A DNA stretch of 36,364 nt, from contig JAUZPB010000039.1 of NCBI GenBank assembly GCA_030706145.1, positions 1-36,364 of the forward strand, given 5' to 3'. The notes below the pieces were generated by a model that had not been told where the DNA came from, made no database searches, and saw only the letters and a list, made by a program, of their open reading frames with translations. Below are positions 7,078-33,894 of the stretch, in pieces (positions within the stretch are counted from its first letter, which is position 1; each line of letters begins with the position of its first letter). Source of the stretch: Bacteroidota bacterium. GTDB lineage: Bacteria > Bacteroidota > Ignavibacteria > Ignavibacteriales > SURF-24. A program made the translations under genes and the position numbers.

Positions 7078-8284
7078 TAGTTCCTCCGAATCCATTATAA
7101 TTAAATATTTCCTCTTTGAAGTTCTCTAAAATTGAAATAAATGCATTCGGGCTTGACTGACCCAATCCGCACTTAGAAGCGACCTGCATAGTCCTTCCAA
7201 GGTCCTTTAGCTTATTAATATAGCTGAATGTATAATTGCGCCTTTCAATATCTTTTATACCTTCAAGAAGCTTCACATTGCCAATGCGGCAAGGAGTGCA
7301 CTGTCCGCAGGATTCCTCGACAAAGAACTCCATGAAGTTTTTAAGGACTTTAAGCATACTCCTGTTTTTATCGAAAATAATGATAGAGCCGCCTGTAGCA
7401 GCATCCTCATAAGCCAGTGTTCTGTCAAATTGAGATCTTGGGATACAGCTTCCAGAGGCGCCGCCAACCTGCACGGCCTTAGCATTTTCGCCCCCTACTA
7501 TTTCGAGCAGTTCACTAATTTTAGTACCCCATGGAAGTTCATATACTCCAGGCCTGGTGCAGTCACCCGAAACGGAAAATAGCTTTGAGCCGGTTGATTT
7601 GTCAGTCCCATATTTTTTAAACCACTCACCGCCTTTAAGCAAAATATGGGGCACTGAGGCAAGAGTCTCGACATTATTTACAACTGTTGGCCTGTTCATA
7701 TAGCCAGTATTAACAGGGTATGGCGGCCTGTTTCTAGCCTCACCGCGGTTACCCTCGAGCGATTCAATCAAAGCTGTTTCTTCGCCGCAGACATAGGCGC
7801 CTGAACCAAGTCGTATGCTGATATCAAAATCGAAACCTTCCTGACCTAAAATAGAATTGCCAAGAAGATTATCTTCTCTCATTTTACTTAGGTAGTCCTC
7901 TAAAGACTGCAGCATATATTCATATTCTCCGCGAAGGTATATAATCCCTTCTTTAGCGCCAATTGTGTAGCCTGCAATTACGATTCCGTCAAAAACGAGT
8001 TCCGGATATTCAAGAAGAAGAACTCTGTCCTTAAATGTACCAGGTTCACCTTCATCAGCATTGCAGACAATGAATTTTTCTTTTGCCACAGAAGCAGCAA
8101 CGAGCATCCATTTAGTAGCTGTTGGAAAACCGGCCCCACCTCTTCCTTTTAATTTAGATTCTCTGATTTCGAAAAGAATGTTTTCCCGTCCTATCTCAAG
8201 AGCCTTCTGAATTCCCTCGCCGCGCAGATAAGGAGAAAACAAGACAGCACCCTGACGAGGAGATTTATTAATACTTATGTCCAT
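7067..8284 (-). CDS. NuoF-like NADH/FMN hydrogenase subunit, short form
   Basis: A 405-residue NuoF-family flavoprotein that would bind FMN and NAD(H) and pass electrons to the hydrogenase. Visible motifs are the FMN/NADH loop GRGGAGFPT (48-56), CNADEGEPGTFKDR, CGEETALIESLEG, and the [4Fe-4S] motif C326/C329/C332 plus C372 (ESCGQCTPC, KCGLGQ). Compared with HydB at 15190-17175 it lacks the N-terminal thioredoxin-like [2Fe-2S] domain and the C-terminal double ferredoxin domain. It is therefore the minimal NuoF core. The chosen ATG at 8284 has AGGAG five bases upstream; the GTG at 8290 overlaps that site. It follows the NuoE-like gene by about 8 bases and overlaps the second hydA. Confidence 0.92.
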   Translation of the reverse strand: MDISINKSPRQGAVLFSPYLRGEGIQKALEIGRENILFEIRESKLKGRGGAGFPTATKWMLVAASVAKEKFIVCNADEGEPGTFKDRVLLLEYPELVFDGIVIAGYTIGAKEGIIYLRGEYEYMLQSLEDYLSKMREDNLLGNSILGQEGFDFDISIRLGSGAYVCGEETALIESLEGNRGEARNRPPYPVNTGYMNRPTVVNNVETLASVPHILLKGGEWFKKYGTDKSTGSKLFSVSGDCTRPGVYELPWGTKISELLEIVGGENAKAVQVGGASGSCIPRSQFDRTLAYEDAATGGSIIIFDKNRSMLKVLKNFMEFFVEESCGQCTPCRIGNVKLLEGIKDIERRNYTFSYINKLKDLGRTMQVASKCGLGQSSPNAFISILENFKEEIFNYNGFGGTNGK

Positions 8285-8292
8285 ATTCACTC

Positions 8293-8766
8293 CTACTTTA
8301 TTTCGTTTAGAATATTGACCGCCTTCTCAGGCGTAAGATGGGTATAGACCCTGTCATTAACAATCATTGCCGGACCCTGATCGCACATACCGAGGCAATT
8401 AGCATATTCCAGAGTAATTCTTTTATCTTTTGTAGTCTGGCCGAAAGTAATGCCTAATTCCCTTTCAATAGCCTTAGCCACAGCATCTTTACCTGCCATA
8501 TCGCAAGTAATTGTTTGGCAAAGTCTTACGATATTTCTTCCATGGGGTTCGGAATGAAGGAAAGCATAAAAGGAGATAACGCTATAGACTTCAACCGGAT
8601 GAATATCCAGAAGGCGAGCTATTTCCTGCTGAGCAAAGTCGGAGATATATTTGTGTTTTCTCTGCAAGGCCTGGAGTATTGGAAGAAGAGAACTTCTTTC
8701 ATGGCCCATCAGATTAACCAGCTCTTCAATCTCCTCAGTCAAAGAATTTTTTTCAAGTAATAGCAT
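8293..8766 (-). CDS. NuoE-like [2Fe-2S] hydrogenase subunit
   Basis: A 157-residue thioredoxin-fold [2Fe-2S] protein of the NuoE/HydC/HndA family. A helical N-terminal half (about 1-70, ending EVYSVISFYAFL) precedes the cluster domain. The four ligands are C83 and C88 (CQTITC) and C124 and C128 (CLGMC), the family spacing. It should sit beside the NuoF-like subunit and shuttle electrons within the NADH-linked hydrogenase. The ribosome site AAGGAG lies inside the last codons of the upstream receiver gene, three bases separate the two genes, and translation is probably coupled. This coupling places a phosphorelay receiver in the same unit as the enzyme. Confidence 0.92.
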   Translation of the reverse strand: MLLLEKNSLTEEIEELVNLMGHERSSLLPILQALQRKHKYISDFAQQEIARLLDIHPVEVYSVISFYAFLHSEPHGRNIVRLCQTITCDMAGKDAVAKAIERELGITFGQTTKDKRITLEYANCLGMCDQGPAMIVNDRVYTHLTPEKAVNILNEIK

Positions 8767-8769
8767 ATA

Positions 8770-9150
8770 CTACTCCTTAACCTGGTGAATAATAAGCTTT
8801 TCTACTTTTTTAATCAGCTCATCTGGAGTAATAGGTTTCTCAACAAAATCGTCGACAGGCACCATTTCATTTGCACCGAAATCCATACCAACAGCTTTGG
8901 AAACCGAAGTGTACATAATGATAGGGGTGTGGATATTCTCTTTTCTGAATTTTTGAGCCAGGAAAAAGCCATCATCTGGTTCATCCATCATAACATCGAG
9001 AATGATAAGGTCGGGGTTATGAAGTTTTACGATGTCATAACCATCATTTGGATTTGTAGCCGTAATGATCTCATATCCTTTCGACTTAAGGACAAGTGAG
9101 CTGGCATCGAGAATATCGGGGTCATCATCAATAATAGCGATTAGTGCCAT
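8770..9150 (-). CDS. Stand-alone response-regulator receiver, atypical phosphoacceptor loop
   Basis: A 126-residue CheY-like receiver with no output domain. The acidic pair is D8-D10 (IIDDDP), the phosphoacceptor is D52 (LIILDVMMD), the switch T/S is at YTS and the lysine is K105 (VEKPI). After D52 the loop reads DVMMDEPDDGF: the usual proline after MM is absent and there is one extra residue before the glycine. The receiver at 10899-11312 shares this pattern. It follows the REC-PAS kinase by 124 bases, in which a sigma-70-like promoter can be seen, and is coupled to the NuoE-like gene. It is likely a phosphoacceptor for one of the adjacent kinases. Its target is unknown because no DNA-binding domain is present. 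Confidence 0.9.
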   Translation of the reverse strand: MALIAIIDDDPDILDASSLVLKSKGYEIITATNPNDGYDIVKLHNPDLIILDVMMDEPDDGFFLAQKFRKENIHTPIIMYTSVSKAVGMDFGANEMVPVDDFVEKPITPDELIKKVEKLIIHQVKE

Positions 9151-9201
9151 ATCCCTTTCTCCGATTTAGTTTTTAATAGATTGAATTAAAGCAACGATAT
9201 A

Positions 9202-9230
9202 TATATAATTTACCGAAGTCAAACTGACAA
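9202..9230 (-). promoter_or_regulatory. Possible internal sigma-70-type promoter before receiver/second hydrogenase
   Basis: On the minus strand TTGTCA (9230-9225) and TATATA (9207-9202) are separated by exactly 17 bases, about 50 bases upstream of the receiver start at 9150. It would let the receiver-NuoE-NuoF-HydA group be expressed apart from the upstream kinases. The -10 part lies in a TA repeat, so chance is possible. Confidence 0.38.
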
Positions 9231-9274
9231 AGGGAAAAAAGAGCTCCAATTAAACTATACTAAAAGAGAAAAAA

Positions 9275-10786
9275 TTATTTTTGGGTAGAAGAACTCTGAC
9301 CATTTTCCTTAATGGGCAGAAAAATCAAGAAAGTAGTACCCACATTAAATTCGCTTTCGACCTCAATTTTACCGGCATAAGAATCAACTATTCTTTTTAC
9401 AATAGACAGTCCGAGGCCAGTACCGCTAATGCCACGGGTCTTATCGTTCTTAACGCGGAAGAATTCCTGAAAGAGTTTAGCTTTTTCTTCTGCTTTAAGG
9501 CCAATTCCCGTATCAGAGACTCTGATTCGCAGGTAGTTGCCTGATCTTTTAATTTCAAGATCAATCGATCCATTGTCTTTATTATATTTAATAGCATTAC
9601 TGATGAGATTGGTAAATAACCTGTTTATCTCGTTTTGATCAGCCATCAAATGGCAGTCAGAGCAACCTATAGACAGGTTAGCTGTAATACCTTTTTTCTT
9701 AAGTTCAAGTTCAAGGAAATCGAGAGTAGATTTCAAAACCTGGGCTATATCTAGTTCTTTTATCTCACGCTGAGTCTTCCTGAGTTCCATTCTGGAGATA
9801 TCAAGAAGATCATTTACCATAGCCAAAAGTCCATTTAACCTGACATAAGATCTGTTTAAGAAATCCTTTTGTTGTTCGGGTTTAACGCCGAAGGTATCGT
9901 CAAGAATTATCTTAATGAATCCAATAACAGCCGCAACAGGAGTCTTTAGTTCATGAGCGACCATTGAAACGAACTGAGATTTTATATCTTCAACTTTTTT
10001 AGCTTCAGTAATATTTCTTATAACAGTTACCACACCGGCCAGAGAGCCATCGGCATGTGGAACAGGCGAGCATGTAGCTTCGACGATCAGTTCTTTATTT
10101 GGCTTTAATTCAATCTGAGTAGAGTAGCTATTTGGGATGTATTCATTTGAATCGATAAATTTCTTTATCATTTCGGTAATTTCAGGGGGGAGAATTTCGA
10201 GGATAACATCACCAATGAATATCTCATGAAGGTCAAGATACTTTAGTGCGCTGGAATTATAAAGGACCAATTCGCCTGTTTTATTAACAACAAGGGCCCC
10301 TTCGGTAATAGAGTTTAATATAGTTTTTAATCGGGTTTTTTCGTAGGCAATTTCAAGAAGTCTTTCTTCCCTTTCCTTCTTCAGTTTTTCAGCTTCAAGA
10401 ATTAGCAGGCGTTTTTCGTAGCCTTTTTTAAGCTGAAGAAGAAGTTCTTCGGGAGTAAAAGGTTTTGGAATATAGCTGTAAGCGCCCAATTTTGTAGATT
10501 CTATAGCAGTCTCATAGCTAGCATAAGCAGTTGCAATAAAACAAACAATATTGGGGTCAATTTTTCTGATCTCCTTTAAAACCTCAATACCATCAAGATC
10601 CGGCATTTTCAGGTCAATAATTGCAAGGTCAAAAGGCTTTGAGCGGGCAAGGTTAATGCCCTCAGTGCCATTTTCGGCAACATCGGCAATAAAGCCTTCG
10701 CTCTCGAGCAAACGCTTAGTACCGAGCCTTAAGCCCTTTTCGTCGTCAATTATCAGGACCTGTGGTTTTAAATCGTCCACAACCAT
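9275..10786 (-). CDS. REC-PAS hybrid sensor histidine kinase
   Basis: A cytoplasmic kinase of 503 residues from the chosen start. An N-terminal receiver has its phosphoacceptor at D58 (LAIIDLKMPDLDG). A linker helix rich in K and E leads to a PAS domain (about 150-265, TILNSITEGALVVNKTGELVLYN). HisKA follows with H278 (MVAHELKTPVAAVIGF), then the ATPase domain (N box NLISNAIKYN, DTGIGLKAEE, GTGLGLSIVKR). There are no membrane segments. The start at 10786 has GAGGG just upstream, while an earlier ATG at 10840 has none and lies in a repeat-like stretch. The receiver at the front would let an upstream kinase, such as the H-cluster sensor kinase two genes earlier, control this kinase. That order is inferred. 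Confidence 0.9.
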   Translation of the reverse strand: MVVDDLKPQVLIIDDEKGLRLGTKRLLESEGFIADVAENGTEGINLARSKPFDLAIIDLKMPDLDGIEVLKEIRKIDPNIVCFIATAYASYETAIESTKLGAYSYIPKPFTPEELLLQLKKGYEKRLLILEAEKLKKEREERLLEIAYEKTRLKTILNSITEGALVVNKTGELVLYNSSALKYLDLHEIFIGDVILEILPPEITEMIKKFIDSNEYIPNSYSTQIELKPNKELIVEATCSPVPHADGSLAGVVTVIRNITEAKKVEDIKSQFVSMVAHELKTPVAAVIGFIKIILDDTFGVKPEQQKDFLNRSYVRLNGLLAMVNDLLDISRMELRKTQREIKELDIAQVLKSTLDFLELELKKKGITANLSIGCSDCHLMADQNEINRLFTNLISNAIKYNKDNGSIDLEIKRSGNYLRIRVSDTGIGLKAEEKAKLFQEFFRVKNDKTRGISGTGLGLSIVKRIVDSYAGKIEVESEFNVGTTFLIFLPIKENGQSSSTQK

Positions 10787-10810
10787 TTTCCCTCTTTGTG
10801 TGTGTGATGA

Positions 10811-10881
10811 GTGTTTAGTGTTTACATGAGATTTATACATGCAAAAGAATCATTCAATAATAAACAATTCGCACTAAACAC
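10811..10881. repeat. 10-bp inverted repeat GTGTTTAGTG / CACTAAACAC
   Basis: GTGTTTAGTG (10811-10820) and its exact complement CACTAAACAC (10872-10881) flank 51 bases just upstream of the REC-PAS kinase start. Neighbouring bases repeat the same GTGTTnGGTGTTTAGTG flavour. It could be a dispersed intergenic repeat or an operator. It also argues that the ATG at 10840, inside it, is not the real start. Confidence 0.45.
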
Positions 10882-10898
10882 CCAACACCAAAAGCTAA

Positions 10899-11312
10899 TT
10901 AAACTTTTGTTTCGAAGAAAGCTTCCATTTTCTGGAGGAGTTCCTCGAAAACAATTGGTTTATTAAGGACAGCATCGCAATTGATCCATTCTTTCTCTTC
11001 GCTGGTAGAAGAACCGAACTTAAATCCGGTCATATAAGTAGCAGAAGTTAGTATGAACACAGGGATCTGTTTGCCAAAGCTATCACGTTTAATCCTATGG
11101 CAGAGAACAAAACCAGAATCATGTTCTTCCATGATAAGGTCAATTATAGCAGCATCTGGTTTTTCTTTTTTAAAAACATTCCAACCGTCTTCAACATTCT
11201 CAGCAGTAACTATCAAATACCCTTTCGATTCCAGAAGCATTTTATGTTGTTCAAGTAGATCGATGTCATCATCTACGAGCATAATTTTTTTTACTTTTTC
11301 GTTAAAAGACAT
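10899..11312 (-). CDS. Stand-alone response-regulator receiver following the H-cluster kinase
   Basis: A 137-residue receiver with no output domain. Acidic residues are in LVDDDID (14-18), the phosphoacceptor is D58 (AAIIDLIMEEHDSGF), the switch is in LTSA, and the lysine is K118 (NKPI). It shares with the receiver at 8770-9150 the missing proline and one extra residue between the phosphoacceptor and the glycine. It also has a longer stretch before the lysine. AAGGAG, overlapping the stop of the sensor kinase, gives it a strong ribosome site; only 12 bases separate the two genes. It is therefore the obvious first partner of the H-cluster sensor kinase. The downstream target is not visible. 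Confidence 0.9.
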   Translation of the reverse strand: MSFNEKVKKIMLVDDDIDLLEQHKMLLESKGYLIVTAENVEDGWNVFKKEKPDAAIIDLIMEEHDSGFVLCHRIKRDSFGKQIPVFILTSATYMTGFKFGSSTSEEKEWINCDAVLNKPIVFEELLQKMEAFFETKV

Positions 11313-11324
11313 TTAGAAAGCTCC

Positions 11325-13319
11325 TTAGTTCATAAAAATTTGATTATTTGTTAAATGCAATGGCAGTGACAGTAAAAAAGTAGTTCCCTGCCCAACAGTG
11401 CTTTGTACTTTTATATCACCCCTATGCATTTTGATTATTCCATAAGTAATTGGAAGACCCAGCCCGGTTCCCTTGCCCATTTTTTTAGTAGTGAAAAACG
11501 GAGTAAAGAGTTTACCAAGGTTTTCCTTTGGAATTCCGCAGCCGGTATCCTTTATTTCGACGCATAGATTTTTATCATTTTTGAAGATCTTAACATCTAT
11601 CTGTTTTACATTTTGCTCTTCAACTGCCTCAAAGGCATTGTTAAGAACATTAAGAAAAACTTCTTTTAACTGGTCAGCATCAGCTTCAAGTACAGGGTCA
11701 TCAGTCTGAGAGTCAATTGAAATAGAGACAGACTGATAAGCCGGGTTGACCTGATAGGTTTTGGAAATTTTCAACAACAGCTCATAAATGTTAATAGTAG
11801 AGAGCCTTAGTTTTCCCTGCCGTGCAAAGTTCAAAAGATTAGAAACAATGTTTTTGCAGCGAATAGTCTCTTCTATAATTAAACTCAGATCTTCAACATA
11901 TTGCTTTAGATCGATCTTCTTAGCCGCATCACTCTTCAGCATTGAAGAATAAAGCAGTATAGTACCCAAAGGATTATTGATCTCATGAGCAACACCAGCA
12001 GCAAGCTGGCCAATTGAAGCAAGTTTTTCGGCCGAATGGAGTTGTTCCTGTGTTTCCTTAAGTTCTGAATAAGCGTTTTCGAGCTTTTCAATTAAGAAAG
12101 GAAGGCACATCTCCTCTTCTGCTAATCCCTTTGCAATTGCTATAGCATATTCCCTGCAGGAACTATATCCGCAAGCTGTACAGTTAAGTTCATCTTTTTC
12201 GGTGAACTTATTTGACCGGATCAGTATCTCTCTAATCTTTTCCTCAGAAGGCATAGGTTTTCTCTGGCTCTTCGAGGTAAAGTTTCTTGAGAGGTTAAGA
12301 TTCCTGCTGTTATAGATATTGCTTTTCCAGATCTGCTTATCGACCGTATTAATACTCTCATTGATGTACTTAATTACCTTTTCTCTTTTAGAATAGTAAT
12401 TAAGATCGCAATCAATAGCAGGTCCGCTGATGCAGCCCTCACAAAAGAGAATATCGACGATTTTAGCATTAATATTGTTACTGGAAATTTCATCAATTAT
12501 CTCAAGGACCTTATCCTTTCCCTCACATACAATAATCTCGCGTTCGAGTATATCGCTAGAGATGCTTGCAGTCTTTAGTAGTCCGCCTGCAAGAGGATAA
12601 GATTTTCCCAAAGATGAATGCGGAGGATCAAAATCCTCATCTTCAAGATTTGAAAGAACAATTCCTTTGTTACTGAAAATAGTTTTTAGTTCGCTGAAAG
12701 TCAAAACTGCATCAATTGCATCTTTAACTTCTTCATCTACATATTCGCTTTTTTTTGCTACACAAGGTCCAATAAAAACTACTTTTGTATCCTCACCCAG
12801 ATTTGCCTTAAGGTATCTGCCCATAGCAATCATAGGCGATACAATGCGGGCAAGGCTAGGGACAAGCTCATCATGGTATTTTTCTATATAATTATAAACA
12901 GCCGGACATGAAGAACTGATAATAGTTTTATTACCAGAGTTTTCAAGTTCCTTTTGATACAAAGGAGAAATAAGGTCAGCTCCGAAAGAAGTCTCAGAGG
13001 CGAACCTAAAGCCCAACTGCCTTAGGGCAGAAGGAATTTTCCTATAATCATCGGGAAAAGAAGCCGGAAAAGAAGGAGCAACAATAGCAACTGCTTTACC
13101 GGTTGTAAGTATATCATCTAAAATTACCTCGATATCACTCTTAATCAGTTTTGCCCGTTGAGAACATACCTTTAGACAATGGCCGCAGCTAATGCATCTT
13201 TCGTCAATAACAACAGCCTGCCCATTCACTACTTTTATAGCAATGGCCGGACACTCTCTTACGCAAGAATAACATCGTTTACACTTTTGCCCTATAGTAC
13301 TGACTATACTTTCATACAT
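11325..13319 (-). CDS. H-cluster-domain sensor histidine kinase (putative H2/redox sensor)
   Basis: A 664-residue soluble fusion. Residues 10-60 are a two-cluster ferredoxin (C13/16/19/23, then C42/45/48/52). Residues about 70-320 are an [FeFe] hydrogenase-like H-cluster domain. L1 is SSSCP (135-139): the position of the proton-relay cysteine is serine while the cluster ligand C138 stays. L2 is GPCVAKK with C186. L3 is FCEGCISGP with C293 and C296. Residues 380-405 carry another Fe-S motif (C380, C383, C388, C405). A short coiled coil leads to HisKA (H445, [13 protein letters not shown]) and an ATPase domain ([27 protein letters not shown]). Loss of the relay cysteine and fusion to a kinase match the sensory (group C-like) hydrogenases. 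H2 as the signal is inferred. It follows the bifurcating hydrogenase by 105 bases. Confidence 0.9.
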
Positions 13320-13375
13320 ACTTACTTGTACCCGGCTATAATGTCATAATATAAAACAAATCCAGAAACAAAGGT

Positions 13376-13403
13376 TGTGCGGACAAAAAAGTAAGTCCGC
13401 ACA
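13376..13403 (-). terminator. Hairpin between hydA and the sensor-kinase gene
   Basis: TGTGCGGAC (13376-13384) pairs perfectly with GTCCGCACA (13395-13403) around a ten-base loop, 22 bases after the hydA stop. On the minus strand it is followed by ACCTTTGTTTC, a poor U-run. It may be a partial terminator or RNA-stabilising stem that makes the sensor operon weaker than hydCBA. Confidence 0.5.
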
Positions 13404-13424
13404 CACATGAAATTTACCTAATTA

Positions 13425-15161
13425 TCAACCAACTTTATCTTTAAGAAGCTGTTTTCTATCAGTATAGGAAGTATGCAAAATTTCATGAGCCTTATGGCTG
13501 TTAGGTGCAATAAAGAATTCTTTATAAATAGTCTTTACAGCTTCATTCTCATGAGATTTACGGCAAACCATTTCATTATCGATTTCGTAAAGGACCTTAA
13601 TTCTCTTCTGAACTTTTTCAGGTTTATTGTGAATAGGCTGACCACCGCCGTTAATGCAGCCGCCAGGGCAAGCCATTACTTCGATGAAGTCATATTTGCA
13701 AGTGCCATTTTCGACCTGTTCAAGTATAGGAGCAACATTTCCGACGCCATTTACGACAGCAATGTGCAAGTCAAGGTCGCCAACCTTAACCGTACAGTCC
13801 TTAACACCCTGCAGTCCGCGGATATCTTCGAATTCCAGTTTATCGAGCTCTTCACCCGTAATGATCTTATAGGCTGTTCTAAGAGCAGCTTCCATAACAC
13901 CGCCAGAAGTACCGAAGATAGCAGCAGCGCCAGTAGATTCGCCGAGGGGATTATCGAATTTATCTTCCGGGAGGTCATTGAAATCTATTCCAGCCATTTT
14001 GAAATATCTTACTAGTTCTCTAGTAGTAAGAACTGCATCGACATCATTCAAATGTTCTTCCTGGAGTTCTGGTCTTCCGGATTCAAATTTCTTAACCGTG
14101 CAAGGCATAATAGAAACCACATAAATATCATTAGGGTCGAGGCCCATTTTCTTTGCATAGTAAGTTTTGCTTATAGCGCCAAGCATTTCGTGAGGGGACT
14201 TACAGGTTGAAATATGCTCAAGCAGAGAAGGTTTATTTTGTTCGACATATTTTATCCAACCAGGGCAGCAGCTTGTAAACATAGGCATTGTCTTATTATT
14301 CTTTATTCTATTTACAAGTTCTGTACCTTCTTCCATAATAGTAAGATCGGCAGCAAAATTAGTATCGAAGACGCGGTCAAAACCTAGTCTTCTAAGTCCA
14401 GTTACAAGCTGTCCTGTAGCATTAGTACCCAAAGGCATGTTATATTCTTCGCCAATAGTAGCTCTTACGGCAGGGGCAACCTGAGCGATAGTGAATTTCT
14501 TTTTGTTCTGCAGAGCGTAAGCTACATCTTTAAGAGCACTTTTTTCTCTAAGAGCAGCAGTCGGGCAAACTAAAATACACTGGCCGCAGAGTATGCAATC
14601 ACTAACGTTAAGTCCTTTGTTATAAGGAGTTGTAACTATGCTAGAGAAACCTCTGTTAGTAAAGTCGATAGCGCCGACCTTTTGAATTTCGTTGCAGACC
14701 CTAACGCAGCGACCGCAGAGGATACATTTAGCAGGGTCTCTTTCCATAGAAGCGCTAGAGATATCGATAGCATGCTGTTTAGTTTCGCCTGCAAATCTAT
14801 GCTCACGTATGCCGTATTTTTCGGAAAGATCCTGAAGTTCACAATTTTTATTTCTAACGCAGATTAGGCAATCCTGAGGATGGTTTTCAACAAGGAGTTC
14901 AACAATTGTTTTGCGAGCTCTGCGGACTCGTGGAGAATTAGTCTCAACGACCATACCCTCAAAGACCGGAAAGGCACAGCTTGGAGTAAGTCCGCGTTGG
15001 CCTTCAACTTCAACGACGCAAATTCTGCAGGCACCTGAAGGAGACAAATTCTTCAGATGGCACAAAGTAGGAATATGAATACCCACAGATTTGGCTGCAT
15101 CAAGAATTGTCATTCCCTCTTCAGCATTTACTTTTATATTATTTATGGTTAACTGAACCAT
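13425..15161 (-). CDS. hydA: [FeFe] hydrogenase catalytic subunit HydA of the bifurcating trimer
   Basis: A 578-residue group A [FeFe] hydrogenase with the full canonical motif set. [2Fe-2S] ligands are C34, C45, C48, C62. The His-Cys [4Fe-4S] site is H94, C98, C101, C107. Two ferredoxin clusters follow (C146/149/152/156 and C189/192/195/199). H-cluster L1 is TSCCPGW (C298, C299), L2 MPCTVKKFE (C354) and L3 MACPGGCINGGGQP (C498, C502). The C-terminal tail RKSHENEAVKTIYKEF is typical. With HydB and HydC it should couple NADH and reduced ferredoxin to H2 production, or the reverse, as in the Thermotoga-type HydABC enzyme. It lies 28 bases after hydB. It serves as the in-window reference for the variant HydA at 5197-7077. 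Confidence 0.96.
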   Translation of the reverse strand: MVQLTINNIKVNAEEGMTILDAAKSVGIHIPTLCHLKNLSPSGACRICVVEVEGQRGLTPSCAFPVFEGMVVETNSPRVRRARKTIVELLVENHPQDCLICVRNKNCELQDLSEKYGIREHRFAGETKQHAIDISSASMERDPAKCILCGRCVRVCNEIQKVGAIDFTNRGFSSIVTTPYNKGLNVSDCILCGQCILVCPTAALREKSALKDVAYALQNKKKFTIAQVAPAVRATIGEEYNMPLGTNATGQLVTGLRRLGFDRVFDTNFAADLTIMEEGTELVNRIKNNKTMPMFTSCCPGWIKYVEQNKPSLLEHISTCKSPHEMLGAISKTYYAKKMGLDPNDIYVVSIMPCTVKKFESGRPELQEEHLNDVDAVLTTRELVRYFKMAGIDFNDLPEDKFDNPLGESTGAAAIFGTSGGVMEAALRTAYKIITGEELDKLEFEDIRGLQGVKDCTVKVGDLDLHIAVVNGVGNVAPILEQVENGTCKYDFIEVMACPGGCINGGGQPIHNKPEKVQKRIKVLYEIDNEMVCRKSHENEAVKTIYKEFFIAPNSHKAHEILHTSYTDRKQLLKDKVG

Positions 15162-15189
15162 TTTTTCACTCCAGATAATTTCAATTAAA

Positions 15190-17175
15190 TTAATTTACTT
15201 CAATTGCTTTAAAGCGGCAGGTATCGAAACACATACCGCACTGAATACATTTGTCCTGAACGATATAATGAGCCTGTCCCTTTTCACCTGCGATGGCTTC
15301 CTGAGGGCATTTTCTCATACAGAGCCCGCAGCCATTACAGATGCTGTTATCTATTGTGTAAGTAAGAAGTTCCTTGCAAACACCAGCAGGACACTTTCTA
15401 TCGTAGAGGTGTGCTTCATACTCATCTTTGAAATATCTGAGTCCCGATAAGACCGGGTTAGGAGCACTCTGTCCGAGTCCGCAAAGTGAAGTATCTTTAA
15501 TAACGTCTGCTAAACGCTGGAGATGGATAACTCCCTTAAACCTTTGTAACTGATCAATTTTATCTTTTGTATTCTTATAGCTTTTAGGAATCCTTTCAAT
15601 TATCTCAAGCATTCTTTTTGTACCCTCGCGGCATGGAACGCATTTACCGCAGGATTCATTTTTGATAAAAGTAAGAAAATACTTAGCTACGTCAACCATA
15701 CAAGTATCTTCATCCATAACAACAAATCCGCCAGAGCCCATCATAGCGCCAACGGTTTTGAGGGATTCATAGTCAACTTGTGTTTTAATAACGCTATCAG
15801 GCAGACAGCCACCGGAAGGGCCGCCAATCTGAACAGCCTTAAAGAGCTTATTATCAGGGATACCACCGCCGATATTAAAAATAATATCTTCGAGTGTAAC
15901 GCCCATTGGGACTTCAACCAAGCCGGAATTTTTTATTTTTCCGCTAAGGGCAAATACTTTTGTTCCTTTGGAGGTTGCAGTTCCAATTGAAGAGAACCAG
16001 GTTGAGCCTCTGGTAATAACCGATGAAATATTAGCCAGTGTCTCAACATTATTAATAATAGTAGGTTTGCCAAAAAGTCCAGCATTTGCAGGATAAGGAG
16101 GACGAGGTCTTGGCATACCGCGCTTTCCTTCAATAGAAGCAATAAGTGCTGTTTCCTCACCGCAGACAAAAGCGCCAGCACCTTTTTTAACTTTTAGTTC
16201 AAAGTTAAAACCGCTTCCAAGTATATTTTTACCAAGGAAGGCATATTTTTTACATTCTTTAATTGCATTTTCTAATCTTTCAATAGCTAGAGGATATTCA
16301 GCACGGCAATAAATATAGCCATGGTTTGCTTCAATTGCATAAGCAGCAATGAGCATACCCTCAATGACTCTATAAGGGTCACTTTCCAAAACTGAACGGT
16401 CCATAAAAGCGCCTGGATCGCCTTCGTCAGCATTACAAATGACATATTTGTCATCTGCCTTATTTTTAAGTGCAAGTTCCCACTTTTTGCCAGTAGGGAA
16501 TCCTGCACCACCTCTTCCTCTTAATCCGCTAGCAAGTACCTCTTTTACGACAGTTTCAGGTTTCATTAGTCTAAGGACCTTATCTAAGCCCTTAAAGCCG
16601 CCAACAGCAATATAAGAGTCGATTGAAACCGGGTCGATGATACCGCAGTTTTCAAGAACAACCTTCATCTGGTGTCTAAAGAAAGGATCCTGTTTAATTG
16701 AAGGTAATTCTTCACTTGGAGTACCATGAGTTCCTAAGAGTTTTTCCTTAAATATACCTTTTTCGACTAAAGTTCTCTGTATAAATTTAGAAACGATCTT
16801 AGGAGTAATTTCGCAATAGGAAACCCTGTCCTGACCTGGGAGTTTGATATCAACGATTACTTCTTTAGCGCAATAACCAATACAGCCTGTAGCTTCAATT
16901 CTAGCCTGAATATTGAGTCTTTCAAGTTCAGCTATAATAGTCTCTTCGACCTTTTTAGCCCCGGAAGCAAGGCCGCAGGTACCCATCCCAATAAAAATAA
17001 TAGGGAGGTCATGATCTTTGTAGGTTAATTTTCTGTTGAGTGCTTTGAATTTATCAATGCACTGCTGATCGTGATGACAAAGCGGGCCTTCAGTACAACA
17101 TGTAACAAACTGATTGCAGGGTTTTTCTTGGCTGTGCCAGCATTCGTCACAGCATTTATCGAGAAAAGTTTTCAT
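15190..17175 (-). CDS. hydB: Bifurcating hydrogenase subunit HydB (NuoF-like, with extra Fe-S domains)
   Basis: A 661-residue NADH/FMN subunit. An unusual Cys-rich N-terminus (C8, C9, C12, C20, C26, C27, C33, C39) precedes a thioredoxin-like [2Fe-2S] domain (about 55-140; C67, C98, C102). The NuoF core has GRGGAGFPTG (220-229), CNADEGDPGAFMDR, CGEETALIASIEG and the [4Fe-4S] motif C509/C512/C515 plus C565. A CPAGVC pair (C595, C600) leads into a C-terminal double ferredoxin (C613/616/619/623, C643/646/649/653). This is the domain layout of HydB in electron-bifurcating trimers, where FMN is the proposed branch point. It overlaps hydC by four bases (ATGA), so translation is coupled. Confidence 0.95.
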   Translation of the reverse strand: MKTFLDKCCDECWHSQEKPCNQFVTCCTEGPLCHHDQQCIDKFKALNRKLTYKDHDLPIIFIGMGTCGLASGAKKVEETIIAELERLNIQARIEATGCIGYCAKEVIVDIKLPGQDRVSYCEITPKIVSKFIQRTLVEKGIFKEKLLGTHGTPSEELPSIKQDPFFRHQMKVVLENCGIIDPVSIDSYIAVGGFKGLDKVLRLMKPETVVKEVLASGLRGRGGAGFPTGKKWELALKNKADDKYVICNADEGDPGAFMDRSVLESDPYRVIEGMLIAAYAIEANHGYIYCRAEYPLAIERLENAIKECKKYAFLGKNILGSGFNFELKVKKGAGAFVCGEETALIASIEGKRGMPRPRPPYPANAGLFGKPTIINNVETLANISSVITRGSTWFSSIGTATSKGTKVFALSGKIKNSGLVEVPMGVTLEDIIFNIGGGIPDNKLFKAVQIGGPSGGCLPDSVIKTQVDYESLKTVGAMMGSGGFVVMDEDTCMVDVAKYFLTFIKNESCGKCVPCREGTKRMLEIIERIPKSYKNTKDKIDQLQRFKGVIHLQRLADVIKDTSLCGLGQSAPNPVLSGLRYFKDEYEAHLYDRKCPAGVCKELLTYTIDNSICNGCGLCMRKCPQEAIAGEKGQAHYIVQDKCIQCGMCFDTCRFKAIEVN

Positions 17176-17672
17176 TTTTCACTCGTAATTTGTTCTTCAA
17201 TTTTTTCAGTTGAATTAGTTTGCGAAGCATACTTTTTAAGTATCTTCGGAATGTCTTTTACTGTTGCCCTTCCATAGTAGTCACCATTGACATTAATGAC
17301 AGGAGCAATGGAGCAGGCTCCAATGCATGCAACAGTCTCGAGTGTGAAAGTTTTGTCACGAGTAGTTTCGCCAGCCTTGCAATTGAGTTCGTTCTCTAGT
17401 GCAAAAAGCAGATTAGCAGAACCCTTAACATGGCAGGCCGTACCTCTGCAAACTCTGATAATGTTTTTACCTAAAGGTTTTAATCTGAACTGATTATAAA
17501 AAGTAGCCACACCATATATTCGGCTAAGAGGCATACCTATAAACTCAGATATATCCATTAAAGCAGTTTCCGGCAAAAAGCCATAAATATTCTGCACATC
17601 CTGTAATAAAGGAATTAAATTACTTTTGTCCTTAGGAGGATAATTCGAAAAAATGTGTGAATGCATGTCCAT
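17172..17672 (-). CDS. hydC: Bifurcating hydrogenase subunit HydC (NuoE-like [2Fe-2S])
   Basis: A 166-residue NuoE-family protein: helical N-terminal part, then a thioredoxin-fold cluster domain with C75 and C80 (CRGTAC) and C116 and C120 (CIGAC). It is the small electron-transfer subunit of the trimer and the first gene of hydCBA. The ATG at 17672 is only one base from AAGG, while an in-frame ATG two codons later (17666) has better spacing. The true start could be either. The 220 bases upstream contain a perfect 14-base palindrome and the purE terminator, so the operon has its own promoter, which I could not place with confidence. Confidence 0.94.
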   Translation of the reverse strand: MDMHSHIFSNYPPKDKSNLIPLLQDVQNIYGFLPETALMDISEFIGMPLSRIYGVATFYNQFRLKPLGKNIIRVCRGTACHVKGSANLLFALENELNCKAGETTRDKTFTLETVACIGACSIAPVINVNGDYYGRATVKDIPKILKKYASQTNSTEKIEEQITSEK

Positions 17673-30765: not shown

Positions 30766-31317
30766 TCAGATCATTTCATTTAACAATTCCTGTCTTGGAG
30801 AAGCAATTACAACTTTGTTGACCAGTAGTCCCCTGTCAGAGGCGACTTTAGCACCGGCTTCAACAGCAGCAGAGACTGCAGCAACTTCTCCTGTACAAGT
30901 AAAGAAAGCTTTTCCGCCTAAGGCCATAGCCAGTCTAAGTTCAATCAGAGTCACAGAAGCAGATTTAACAGCAGCATCAGCAGCTTCGATAAGAGATGCG
31001 ACAGAAAAAGTCTCAACTATACCTAAAGACTCAAGTGTCTGAATGCCGCTATGTCCGGCAATAGCAGGAAAGATCTGTTCGTGAACATTAGGTATAACAA
31101 ATGTATCAATAACTGCAAAACCAATTTTACTTACAGCTGAATCAACAGCAGTCTGAACTGCAGCAACATCTCCTCCAATAAGTACAATATATTTACCGGA
31201 ACAGATAGTCCGGGAAATTATCAGTTCTACATCTGAGGTCTTAAGCATAGTATCTGCTGCAAGCATACCAGCAGCAATGCTAGATAGTTCGATTAAACCA
31301 ATTGAGTTCTTTTCCAT
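30766..31317 (-). CDS. pduT: PduT-like tandem-BMC shell protein with Fe-S cysteine
   Basis: A 183-residue protein made of two BMC domains (about 4-85 and 98-175; IGLIELSSIAAGMLAADTML and VGIVETFSVASLIEAADAAV-like starts). It forms pseudohexameric trimers in microcompartment shells. Its closest match from memory is PduT: LISRTICSGKYIVLIGGDVAAVQ resembles the segment that holds the PduT pore cysteine, here C39. In PduT three such cysteines from the trimer bind a [4Fe-4S] cluster at the pore. The gene follows the PduS-like gene by 24 bases, the same pair as in propanediol utilisation. No other shell protein or signature enzyme is in the window, so the compartment, if any, must be encoded elsewhere. 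Confidence 0.92.
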   Translation of the reverse strand: MEKNSIGLIELSSIAAGMLAADTMLKTSDVELIISRTICSGKYIVLIGGDVAAVQTAVDSAVSKIGFAVIDTFVIPNVHEQIFPAIAGHSGIQTLESLGIVETFSVASLIEAADAAVKSASVTLIELRLAMALGGKAFFTCTGEVAAVSAAVEAGAKVASDRGLLVNKVVIASPRQELLNEMI

Positions 31318-31341
31318 TTACTTTTATTTTTGTCTTTTTAC

Positions 31342-32658
31342 TTACACTGCAATAATTTTTAAATAATCTTCAGAAATTTCAGTAACCTTTCCGCCAATTG
31401 AAGCATGAACATTAGCACCAAGTTTCCCTTCTGGTATAGCTGCAATTAGTTGTCCTTTTTTTACATGGTCCCCTATTTTAACAACCGGAACAGAGGGTTC
31501 ACCAACATGCTGTTTAAGATAAATTTTTACAGAATGAGGAATTAGCTCCTCTTTATTAAAGGGAGTATGCAGGTTAAAGTTTTGAAGGTTAAGTTTTTTA
31601 ATAAGCTGTTTTACAGGAACTCTTCTGCCTTCTTTTATAGGATGCACTTTTACAGGGTGAGACTGGACATATTTGAAAGAAGCTTTTCTCATTTCAGCTT
31701 TTGACTGGTCGCAAGCTTCTTTTGGATAAAGTTCTTCAGGACAGGAGTAAAGAGAACAAAGTCCGCAGCTGCAGCAAAGCTCAGCATACTGATTCCAAAG
31801 TTCTGAAGAAGCAGATGTAAATACTAAAGAGCGCATAACCTTATGGGGCTGGACATTATAGCCGAGCAAATATCTTGGGCAAAATTCAGTACATGAGCTG
31901 CACTGGTCACAAGCGGATTTTCCAATCCTCAACTTCGATGGCTGAGATCTCCCTTTTCTATTGACCAGGTAATGATCCTTAGGAAGGACGATAATACCAG
32001 CAGTAGTTTTCTTAACGACCTCATTAAGATCATAAGTCAAGCTTCCCATCATTACACCGCTAACAAAGATAGCATAATCACGAACTGAAGGGCCGCCAGC
32101 ATAGTCAATCAGCTTTTCAAAGCTTGTACCTAAAGGAGCAAAGAAAGTAGATGGTTTTTTAACAGCGCCCGTTACAGTCAGAAGTTTATCTGTAACAGGT
32201 ATTCCCTCTGCGGCTCTTGAAATATTAAAAAAGGTCTCAACGTTATTAACAATACATCCAACATTTAATGGGATACCAGCCGGAGGAATCAATCTTTTAG
32301 TAACAGAGTAGACCAGTTCATATTCATCCCCGGCAGGGTAAAAATCGCCGAGTTCGCAAATTTCGATTGGATGGTCAGAAATATTAGATTCAATAGCTTC
32401 AATGGCCTTTGCATTTTTGCTTTTTATGCCGAAATATCCAAGCCTGGCTGAAGTATTTTCGATCATAAGGCTCATGCCGTTAACAACTTCAGGAGCAAAG
32501 TTCACCATTACCTCAAAGTCTTTATGAAGAAGAGGTTCGCACTCGGCTCCATTAGCAATAACAAATTCAACTTTAGACTTTGCTTTAATGTGAGTAGGAA
32601 ACCCGGCACCTCCGGCACCAACGACTCCGGCATTAAGCAATTTCTCAACAAAGTCCAT
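31342..32658 (-). CDS. pduS: PduS/RnfC-like flavo-iron-sulfur protein
   Basis: A 438-residue protein related to PduS and to the RnfC subunit. The N-terminal FMN/NADH part has AGVVGAGGAGFPTHIK (10-25) and ECEPLLHKD (39-47). An SLBB-like middle region follows. Two [4Fe-4S] sites are C250/C253/C256/C260 and C295/C298/C301/C306. A C-terminal barrel-sandwich segment ends the protein (about 395-438, VKIGDHVKKGQLIAAIPEG). In Salmonella, PduS takes electrons from NADH and is linked to cobalamin reduction, and PduT is its shell partner. The order PduS then PduT is kept here. No cobalamin-dependent diol dehydratase is present. It starts three bases after the phosphatase gene. Confidence 0.92.
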   Translation of the reverse strand: MDFVEKLLNAGVVGAGGAGFPTHIKAKSKVEFVIANGAECEPLLHKDFEVMVNFAPEVVNGMSLMIENTSARLGYFGIKSKNAKAIEAIESNISDHPIEICELGDFYPAGDEYELVYSVTKRLIPPAGIPLNVGCIVNNVETFFNISRAAEGIPVTDKLLTVTGAVKKPSTFFAPLGTSFEKLIDYAGGPSVRDYAIFVSGVMMGSLTYDLNEVVKKTTAGIIVLPKDHYLVNRKGRSQPSKLRIGKSACDQCSSCTEFCPRYLLGYNVQPHKVMRSLVFTSASSELWNQYAELCCSCGLCSLYSCPEELYPKEACDQSKAEMRKASFKYVQSHPVKVHPIKEGRRVPVKQLIKKLNLQNFNLHTPFNKEELIPHSVKIYLKQHVGEPSVPVVKIGDHVKKGQLIAAIPEGKLGANVHASIGGKVTEISEDYLKIIAV

Positions 32659-32661
32659 AAC

Positions 32662-33894
32662 TCAGTAAGTCCTTTTAATAACGACGAGAGTTTTATCATC
32701 GCAATAAACCCCGTCCTTTGAGAAATGAATAACATCATTTAATATTGAGTAAGCGATTTCCTTTGGGGAGAGGTGAACAGCATCCTTGATAATTTTTTCT
32801 AATCTATGCTCCTCATACAGCACGCCGCTAATATCCTGTGCTTCAGTAATGCCGTCAGTATAGATTACAAGCACATCTCCTTTTGAGAAGTTAATATTAT
32901 CGGTTTCATATTTGGCATGGGGTGCAGGGCCAAGCAGTGGGCCAGTAGGCATAAGGTATTCGATCTCACCAGAATCAGCTTTGATAAAGATTGGAGGATT
33001 ATGTCCTGCGTTTGCATAGAGAAAAAGACCATTTCGGTCTGTAGAGATCTCGCCATAGAAAAGAGTAGTAAATTTAGCCTCACTGAAAATCTTGTGTACG
33101 AGGTCGTTCATTCTTTTCAAAATTGAAGAGATCTTGATCTGAAAAGTGCTAGCCATTCTAAGAGCACCAGATACATACATAGCTTCAGCTGCAGCGCTAA
33201 GGCCCTTGCTTGCAGCATCACCCACAGCAATTCCGAGGCGTTCTTCATCATCACCAATCTTTAGATAATCAAAAAAATCGCCGCCAACAATCTCAGCAGG
33301 CACAGTAACACCAAACATATCATAATTATGGAATCTGTACTCATGTTCGGGAAGTATGCTTTTCTGAAGCTGTTTAGCACGATCAATATCCTCTCTCATA
33401 TGGAGAGTGCTTTGAGCCAGGCGTCTTTCCTTAAGCTGTGAGCTTAGAACAGTAGCAACAATATTCAAAGTATATCTCAGCTCATCATTAATATTATTGC
33501 TATTAAGAGCAAGGAGATATTCATAAAAAGGTTTACCATCAATTTTTATTCGATGGCCGACACCAGAGGCTGAATACTTAAAGATACCTTTTTTACGAAG
33601 AACCATATTAGTCTCATCGGCTAATATGGTTCTTTCATTTGCAATAAGTTCAAATATTGGATAGTCTTTCAGGTAAATAGAAAAGTCCTTGTTGATCTTC
33701 TCAACCTGGCCAGTTTGATATAAAAGCCTGTATGCTCTGTTGTCTTTATCCAGGACCCATAATCTTCCGCCTGTAATTCCAGTCTCTTCCTTAAGAATGA
33801 TCTCATTAAGTACAGTACCGAGCATTTCCTCTTCGTTTTTATATTGCCCGGCAGCAACCTTATCTATTGTTCTATAAAGTCTTTTCTGGTTCAT
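32662..33894 (-). CDS. GAF-like/PP2C (SpoIIE/RsbU-type) serine phosphatase
   Basis: A 410-residue cytoplasmic phosphatase. The N-terminal 150 residues look like a divergent GAF-type sensor, followed by a short helix (RAKQLQKSILPEH, the usual RsbU linker). The PP2C domain runs from about 190 to the end, with metal-binding aspartates in GGDFFD (D206, D209), GDAASKG, YTDGITEAQ and the final DDKTLVVIK. Such phosphatases reset anti-anti-sigma proteins in partner-switching stress systems. No STAS or HPK-type anti-sigma gene is in the window. It lies 18 bases after the peptidase gene and 3 bases before the PduS-like gene. PP2C genes are also known near [FeFe] hydrogenase genes in other anaerobes, but this is recalled, not tested. 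Confidence 0.9.
   Translation of the reverse strand: MNQKRLYRTIDKVAAGQYKNEEEMLGTVLNEIILKEETGITGGRLWVLDKDNRAYRLLYQTGQVEKINKDFSIYLKDYPIFELIANERTILADETNMVLRKKGIFKYSASGVGHRIKIDGKPFYEYLLALNSNNINDELRYTLNIVATVLSSQLKERRLAQSTLHMREDIDRAKQLQKSILPEHEYRFHNYDMFGVTVPAEIVGGDFFDYLKIGDDEERLGIAVGDAASKGLSAAAEAMYVSGALRMASTFQIKISSILKRMNDLVHKIFSEAKFTTLFYGEISTDRNGLFLYANAGHNPPIFIKADSGEIEYLMPTGPLLGPAPHAKYETDNINFSKGDVLVIYTDGITEAQDISGVLYEEHRLEKIIKDAVHLSPKEIAYSILNDVIHFSKDGVYCDDKTLVVIKRTY

What the first reader, a model, noticed from the sequence alone, without database searches (positions are those of the whole stretch)
30766..32658. Orphan PduS-PduT pair: a shell electron conduit without its microcompartment
Seen: a PduS-like protein with both [4Fe-4S] sites and a PduT-like tandem-BMC protein with the cluster cysteine C39 are adjacent, with no BMC-H, pentamer or signature enzyme in the window. 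Known: PduS and PduT move electrons between NADH and the inside of the propanediol compartment. Inferred: either a satellite of a distant BMC locus, or the pair now works outside a compartment, possibly in the same redox economy as the nearby hydrogenases.
Basis: partly seen in the sequence, partly recalled or inferred. Interest (0 to 1): 0.68.

Follow-up and report, generated by a model that had tools for sequence, protein, structure and literature searches.

The report
Redox gate of a scattered organelle
The two genes are not orphans: they belong to a bacterial protein organelle whose shell genes are scattered over at least four places in the genome, and whose cargo, unassigned in the literature we could search, most likely breaks down the deoxyribose sugar of DNA.

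Summary
The window's genome (order Ignavibacteriales) encodes a full shell set: two BMC-H (C146), three BMC-P (C24 pair, C291) and the window's PduT-like BMC-T. They lie at four dispersed sites among housekeeping genes, with no main operon. This matches the FRAG type of Sutter et al. 2021, whose function is listed as unknown.

New here is a cargo assignment. Genomes with the dispersed shell carry a deoxyribose-phosphate aldolase (DeoC) with an N-terminal extension resembling an encapsulation peptide. All but two also carry an acetylating acetaldehyde dehydrogenase with a C-terminal one. Relatives without the shell lack both. Across the class, 65 of 72 BMC-P genomes have the extended DeoC; none of 125 others does. 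A tree of flanking genes needs five shell losses, each with both cargo changes. Phosphopentomutase (deoB) is beside the BMC-P pair in 21 of 21 genomes. One same-class genome has RpiB, DeoC, dehydrogenase, BMC-H and BMC-P in one operon, an SPU-type locus.

PduST is an accessory module, missing from four shell-bearing genomes. It probably passes electrons from lumenal NADH through the shell (inferred). In the window's own genome deoC falls in an assembly hole. Coupling to the nearby hydrogenases is unproven.

The parts
30766..31317 (-). PduT-like tandem BMC-T shell protein, 183 aa
   Evidence: PF00936 x2, E 5.7e-46; PDB PduT homologs 1e-44 to 1e-52
31201..31203 (-). codon of Cys39, predicted ligand of the pore [4Fe-4S] cluster
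   Evidence: Cys in 80/80 related loci; aligned with C38 of 3nwg
31342..32658 (-). PduS-like NADH/FMN/2x[4Fe-4S] oxidoreductase, 438 aa
   Evidence: Complex1_51K, SLBB, Fer4_17, RnfC_N; RnfC structures 7zc6, 9eri
31741..31776 (-). PduS second cluster motif C295xxC298xxC301xxxxC306
   Evidence: invariant in 75/76 loci, one unaligned
31879..31911 (-). PduS first cluster motif C250xxC253xxC256xxxC260
   Evidence: invariant in 74-75/76 loci, rest unaligned
32602..32619 (-). PduS GxGxxG nucleotide-binding motif
32662..33894 (-). SpoIIE-type PP2C phosphatase directly upstream of PduS, 3 bp apart; likely co-transcribed, role unknown
   Evidence: PF07228; kept next to PduST in 11 related loci

Best explanation
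PduS-PduT are the redox module of a dispersed (FRAG-type) bacterial microcompartment of Ignavibacteria whose cargo is deoxyribose-phosphate aldolase plus acetylating acetaldehyde dehydrogenase. Deoxyribose-1-phosphate from deoxynucleosides is converted by phosphopentomutase (DeoB, encoded beside the BMC-P pair) to deoxyribose-5-phosphate. This enters the shell (BMC-H1/H2, BMC-T, three BMC-P). [quoted passage not shown] The dehydrogenase, held by its C-terminal peptide, turns acetaldehyde into acetyl-CoA and NADH. PduS on the lumen side oxidises part of this NADH and passes electrons through the PduT pore cluster to a cytosolic acceptor, so the lumen need not rely only on NAD+ exchange. Supported by sequence data: shell set, dispersal, terminal extensions, enzyme families, co-occurrence, co-loss, and an operon version in a relative. 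Inferred: actual encapsulation, flux, electron direction and acceptor.
For: Own genome: 2 BMC-H, tandem BMC-T and 3 BMC-P at four sites. Order: shell in 49 of 59 genomes. Dehydrogenase with conserved C-terminal amphipathic tail, in 47 of 49 shell-bearing and 0 of 10 others; the own copy passes the TIGR02518 acetaldehyde dehydrogenase cut-off, 621.4 vs 620.1 bits. DeoC with N-terminal EP-like extension in all 45 shell-bearing genomes inspected and in none of 10 without. Class: EP-DeoC 65/72 BMC-P+ vs 0/125 BMC-P-. Five shell losses on a FolD+SpoU+AroA tree, all with loss of the DeoC peptide and the dehydrogenase. deoB next to the BMC-P pair in 21/21. Operon RpiB-DeoC(63%)-BMC-P-ALDH(53%)-BMC-H(82%)...BMC-P-BMC-P in G128 (L269). 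Elusimicrobia operons with PduST about 62% identical for PduT plus TIM, PduL, RpiB, DeoC (L072, L094, L102, L106, L119). PduS binding to PduT, NADH oxidation and FeS clusters are published for enteric homologs (PMC2982820).
Against: deoC is absent from the window's own assembly; it is missing together with its neighbours folD and aroA, so an assembly hole is likely but not proven. PduL is absent in the own genome, so lumenal CoA recycling is unexplained. Hydrophobic moment of the DeoC N-terminus is not exceptional (72nd percentile). The DeoC core tree puts the shell-less DeoCs together on long branches with only two changes. Independent-pair sign tests are 4/4 concordant but too few for significance (p 0.125). 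Two shell-bearing genomes (G048, G058) lack the dehydrogenase. PduST is dispensable (missing in G008, G012, G037, G042), so its role is not essential to the pathway.
Confidence: 0.8

Rival explanations
1. The pair is a true orphan that works outside any compartment, for example in electron exchange with the nearby NADH-dependent [FeFe] hydrogenases.
For: PduST lies about 16 kb from HydA here and on the same contig within about 8-30 kb in a number of relatives; in shell-bearing genomes PduST loss goes with hydrogenase loss, 3/5 vs 1/44.
Against: The window PduS ortholog is absent from all 10 shell-less relatives although most of them keep the hydrogenase; three complete genomes have the two 136-340 kb apart; co-loss not significant after tree correction; PduT is a shell-forming protein with a published midpoint of about +99 mV in the enteric homolog.
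Confidence: 0.05
2. The pair is a satellite of a conventional BMC (PDU, EUT, GRM or PVM-like) encoded in one main operon of the same genome.
For: Some relatives (G002, G006, G033, G034, G038, G054) have such operons with PduP-like dehydrogenase and mostly PduL and AckA.
Against: In the own genome every BMC-H and BMC-P hit is at the dispersed sites, PduL is absent and no operon-type PduP was seen. Where an operon BMC exists it usually carries its own 40-46% PduST copy.
Confidence: 0.04
3. The dispersed shell is real but its cargo is something else; DeoC and the dehydrogenase carry the extensions for another reason and co-vary through shared ecology.
For: No localisation data; amphipathicity of the DeoC N-terminus is ordinary; RpiB, a defining SPU enzyme, was not tested genome-wide.
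Against: Extensions appear and vanish with the shell; an operon with the same parts exists in the class; SPU BMCs with DeoC are an established type (PMC8217296, PMC4207490).
Confidence: 0.08
4. PduST is in the compartment but runs inward, supplying electrons from cytosol to a lumenal reductase, or is a remnant of an ancestral locus without present function.
For: Dispensable in four shell-bearing genomes; Axen et al. considered remnant status for PduS in SPU loci (PMC4207490).
Against: All nine cofactor cysteines invariant across a wide span; published potentials favour outward flow from NADH.
Confidence: 0.15

Closest known systems
FRAG BMC (Sutter et al. 2021, PMC8217296)
   Same: Shell genes at several genomic locations with no defined locus, a BMC-P triplet, occurrence in Ignavibacteriae, mostly remote from enzyme genes
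   Different: FRAG was defined by shell composition with no signature enzyme known; here EP-tagged DeoC, an EP-tagged acetaldehyde dehydrogenase, neighbouring DeoB and a PduST module are tied to it
SPU (sugar phosphate utilization) BMC
   Same: DeoC, acetylating acetaldehyde dehydrogenase, BMC-H, three BMC-P; a same-class operon (L269) has homologous parts at 53-82% identity plus RpiB
   Different: SPU is one clustered locus with RpiB and usually PduL; here the genes are dispersed, PduL is absent from the own genome and RpiB was not tested
PDU BMC PduS-PduT (Salmonella, Citrobacter)
   Same: Adjacent pair, same domains, same cluster cysteines, same BMC-T fold
   Different: No PDU operon here; in PDU PduS serves B12 recycling for diol dehydratase, while the proposed cargo here needs no B12; PduT below the equivalog cut-off
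HO BMC (Haliangium) with distal DeoC
   Same: Sutter et al. note a DeoC-type enzyme elsewhere in the genome with an EP-like N-terminal extension in some HO genomes
   Different: HO has a main locus; FRAG here has none

Membership tests
FRAG BMC | shell genes at multiple genomic locations, no main locus | tested here: met
   C24 pair, C146 pair, C279 (window), C291 single; neighbours are housekeeping genes
FRAG BMC | BMC-P triplet | tested here: met
   three PF03319 genes in own genome and typically three per relative
FRAG BMC | assignment to FRAG1-7 by shell-protein HMMs | not testable with these tools
   subtype HMMs not on hand
SPU BMC | DeoC-type aldolase (pfam01791) carrying an encapsulation peptide | tested here: inconclusive
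   met in all inspected shell-bearing relatives; absent from own assembly with flanking folD and aroA
SPU BMC | acetaldehyde-type AldDh with encapsulation peptide | tested here: met
   L154 9358-10953, TIGR02518 621.4 vs 620.1 bits, conserved C-terminal tail in 16/16
SPU BMC | RpiB (pfam02502) | not tested
   no genome-wide search left; found in L269 and Elusimicrobia loci only
SPU BMC | genes clustered in one locus | tested here: not met
   dispersed in own genome and order
PDU BMC | PduL phosphotransacylase in genome | tested here: not met
   no PF06130 match in own genome
PDU BMC | PduT equivalog (TIGR02526 cut-off) | tested here: not met
   119 vs 250 bits
PDU BMC | B12-dependent diol dehydratase | not tested
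   no genome-wide search left; none next to any shell gene
PduS-PduT pair | PduS domain set, two tetra-Cys motifs, tandem BMC-T with pore Cys, adjacency | tested here: met
Encapsulation peptide | terminal helix of about 18 residues, amphipathic, joined by a poorly conserved linker | tested here: inconclusive
   definition from PMC12339742. ALDH tail fits: conserved terminal helix after a variable linker, 89th percentile moment; DeoC N-terminus conserved but moment only 72nd percentile and the linker is partly conserved

The most novel reading that the evidence does not exclude
A class-wide ancestral deoxyribose (DNA-degrading) organelle was broken up so that shell, cargo and redox gate each sit alone in housekeeping operons, giving a constitutive rather than substrate-induced microcompartment with a removable PduST electron exit.
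Probability: 0.45. Interest if true: 0.75.

Novelty: new variant of a known kind. Interest (0 to 1): 0.62.

Why it matters
FRAG microcompartments were catalogued in 2021 as enigmatic, with shell genes but no signature enzyme. Tying the Ignavibacterial form to an EP-tagged DeoC and acetaldehyde dehydrogenase turns an unknown organelle into a testable DNA-sugar catabolism, in a widespread order of environmental bacteria. It also shows that reading BMC function from one operon misses organelles whose parts are spread over a genome. The PduST pair becomes a case where a B12-free compartment keeps or drops its electron gate, which makes the long-open question of what PduST does outside PDU testable by comparing close relatives with and without it.

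Tried and rejected
Orphan reading: rejected after locating the remaining shell genes. Cargo encoded beside PduST in Ignavibacteria: rejected, neighbours are housekeeping; AckA next to PduT in a few loci was followed but is not general. PduL as part of the own system: absent. Simple deoC loss in the own genome: disfavoured because folD and aroA are missing too. Amphipathicity as proof of an encapsulation peptide in DeoC: tried, not discriminating. DeoC core tree as species proxy: gave only two changes and long branches; replaced by FolD+SpoU+AroA. Hydrogenase link: uncorrected association only. Structure prediction was not used because sequence matches to solved PduT proteins were already decisive.

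Full report
What is there. The two ORFs are as described. PduT-like 30766-31317(-) is a tandem BMC-T with C39; PduS-like 31342-32658(-) has all four expected domains, both tetra-cysteine motifs and GxGxxG. C39 aligns with C38 of 3nwg, and 3n79 has Ser there. C39 is Cys in 80 of 80 related loci and the eight PduS cysteines are invariant where aligned. The pair is kept adjacent almost everywhere. A SpoIIE-type phosphatase lies 3 bp upstream of PduS and stays there in 11 related loci.

Where the rest is. A whole-genome search found four BMC domains (two are the window's own) and three BMC-P. Two BMC-H genes lie between ruvX and ybbR/tmk on C146. Two BMC-P genes lie between deoB and an rpoD-like sigma gene on C24, and one BMC-P next to dprA on C291. 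So the genome has all three shell classes, at four sites, none beside enzymes of a main operon except deoB. Titles of related contigs place it in Ignavibacteria. Among 59 genomes, 57 have BMC domains and 53 have BMC-P. The usual pattern is four BMC domains plus three BMC-P. Sutter et al. 2021 call such systems FRAG: up to six locations, a BMC-P triplet, Ignavibacteriae among the hosts, no signature enzyme known (PMC8217296). Axen et al. 2014 had noticed seven BMC-P over five loci in Melioribacter roseus (PMC4207490). The finding's own refutation condition is thus met in spirit: the pair belongs to a microcompartment, but one without an operon.

Finding the cargo. A PduP-like dehydrogenase from a Calditrichota PduST locus was used as probe in 59 genomes. 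It revealed a 521-561 aa dehydrogenase in 47 of 49 shell-bearing genomes and 0 of 10 others (Fisher 1e-9). The extra length is a C-terminal tail: a conserved IEERLRARAGN segment, a variable linker and a terminal helix of the form GISExEIxKIIKEFK in 16 of 16. The window genome's copy (L154 9358-10953) passes the TIGR02518 acetaldehyde dehydrogenase (acetylating) cut-off, narrowly: 621.4 vs 620.1 bits. Since deoB sits beside the BMC-P pair and DeoC is a known acetaldehyde source, DeoC was tested. Shell-bearing genomes have DeoC with an extension of about 65-70 aa starting MxxSxIDKVVSQVFxEKALxxFYC. The ten shell-less genomes have no such extension; G056 keeps a degenerate one and G033/G040 an unrelated one. 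This includes G002, G006, G033 and G054, which own other BMC operons.

How strong is the link. Class-wide, 197 genomes: EP-DeoC in 65 of 72 BMC-P genomes and 0 of 125 others. Eight of the 65 were called from alignments starting at residue 15-35 with long frames; without them the count is 57 of 72. Of the seven exceptions, four (G111, G136, G190, G216) have operon-type BMCs seen in L271-L274 and G006 another operon (L241); G084 is cut by a contig end, and the seventh is the window's own genome. These tests ignore kinship. A tree of FolD+SpoU+AroA, the genes flanking deoC, needs five shell losses (four forced by supported branches), and in each the DeoC peptide and the dehydrogenase go too. Supported independent pairs number only four, all concordant, so the sign test cannot reach significance. 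The DeoC core tree itself groups shell-less enzymes on long branches, which may be real divergence or an artefact.

Operon versions. In G128, same class, one operon reads RpiB (with N-terminal extension), DeoC (63% identical), BMC-P, dehydrogenase (53%), BMC-H (82%), an actin-like protein, a CcmP-like protein, an unknown, BMC-P, BMC-P. This is an SPU-type locus made of the same parts. Elusimicrobia loci have PduS-PduT (PduT about 62% identical), TIM, PduL, BMC-H, BMC-P, PduP, RpiB and DeoC. deoB is next to the BMC-P pair in 21 of 21 order genomes checked; two class genomes (L284, L286) lack it there.

The hole in the own genome. deoC is not found in the window's assembly. A concatenated query of DeoC, FolD, SpoU and AroA found only SpoU paralogs at E up to 10. 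The four genes are neighbours in relatives and FolD/AroA are normally indispensable, so a missing assembly segment is the best reading. For this one genome, EP-DeoC is inferred from its sisters G003 and G004.

Mechanism. Supported by sequence: shell set, dispersal, cargo candidates with tails, co-loss, pathway context. Published for homologs: DeoC makes glyceraldehyde-3-phosphate and acetaldehyde; PduS oxidises NADH through FMN and two clusters and binds PduT; PduT has a pore cluster near +99 mV. Inferred: DeoC and dehydrogenase are inside; NADH made there is partly reoxidised by PduS and electrons leave through PduT. PduST is missing in G008, G012, G037 and G042, which keep shell and cargo, so it is accessory. 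PduST loss tends to go with FeFe-hydrogenase loss; shared oxygen exposure could explain this, since both hold oxygen-labile clusters, and the data cannot separate the options.

Literature check. Searches for FRAG, for DeoC or deoxyribose with microcompartments, and for Ignavibacteria with microcompartments found no earlier assignment of DeoC to FRAG in the open-access library. Subscription papers and preprints were not searchable, so priority is not certain. The SPU idea of DNA-sugar use, and distal EP-DeoC for the HO type, are prior art (PMC8217296).

Verdict. Observation confirmed; orphan reading rejected; system is a new variant of a known kind: a dispersed SPU-like microcompartment with PduST as redox module.

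Noticed in passing
window 5197-17672: Two NADH-linked [FeFe] hydrogenase gene sets, with a sensory-type protein between them that joins an Fe-hydrogenase domain to a histidine kinase (11325-13319).
   Followed up: partly
L005:10053-10649 and homologs in L224, L225, L226, L238, L239: The second BMC-H carries a long C-terminal tail ending in a conserved domain (VHKLRRLARGLxxFPIKGREISKANR) with no Pfam match; function unknown.
   Followed up: partly
L204-L206, L210-L213, L215, L220, L223: A small gene that looks like a PIN-domain toxin (by eye, not scanned), in some with a further small ORF beside it, is inserted between deoB and the BMC-P pair in about half of the genomes.
   Followed up: no
G056 (L202, L293): A genome apparently in mid-loss: no BMC-P, dehydrogenase or PduS, two BMC domains kept, DeoC with a degenerate N-terminal peptide.
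   Followed up: partly
L048, L073, L076: A 125-147 aa gene that looks like a GxxExxY-type protein (by eye, not scanned) lies between pduS and pduT in three loci.
   Followed up: no
G000 genome: No PduL in the genome although an acyl-CoA-forming dehydrogenase is predicted in the lumen; how CoA is recycled is open.
   Followed up: no
L280 (G070): Half-clustered variant: BMC-P triplet, PduL, PduP-like dehydrogenase, BMC-H and AckA together, with the extended DeoC about 77 kb away.
   Followed up: no
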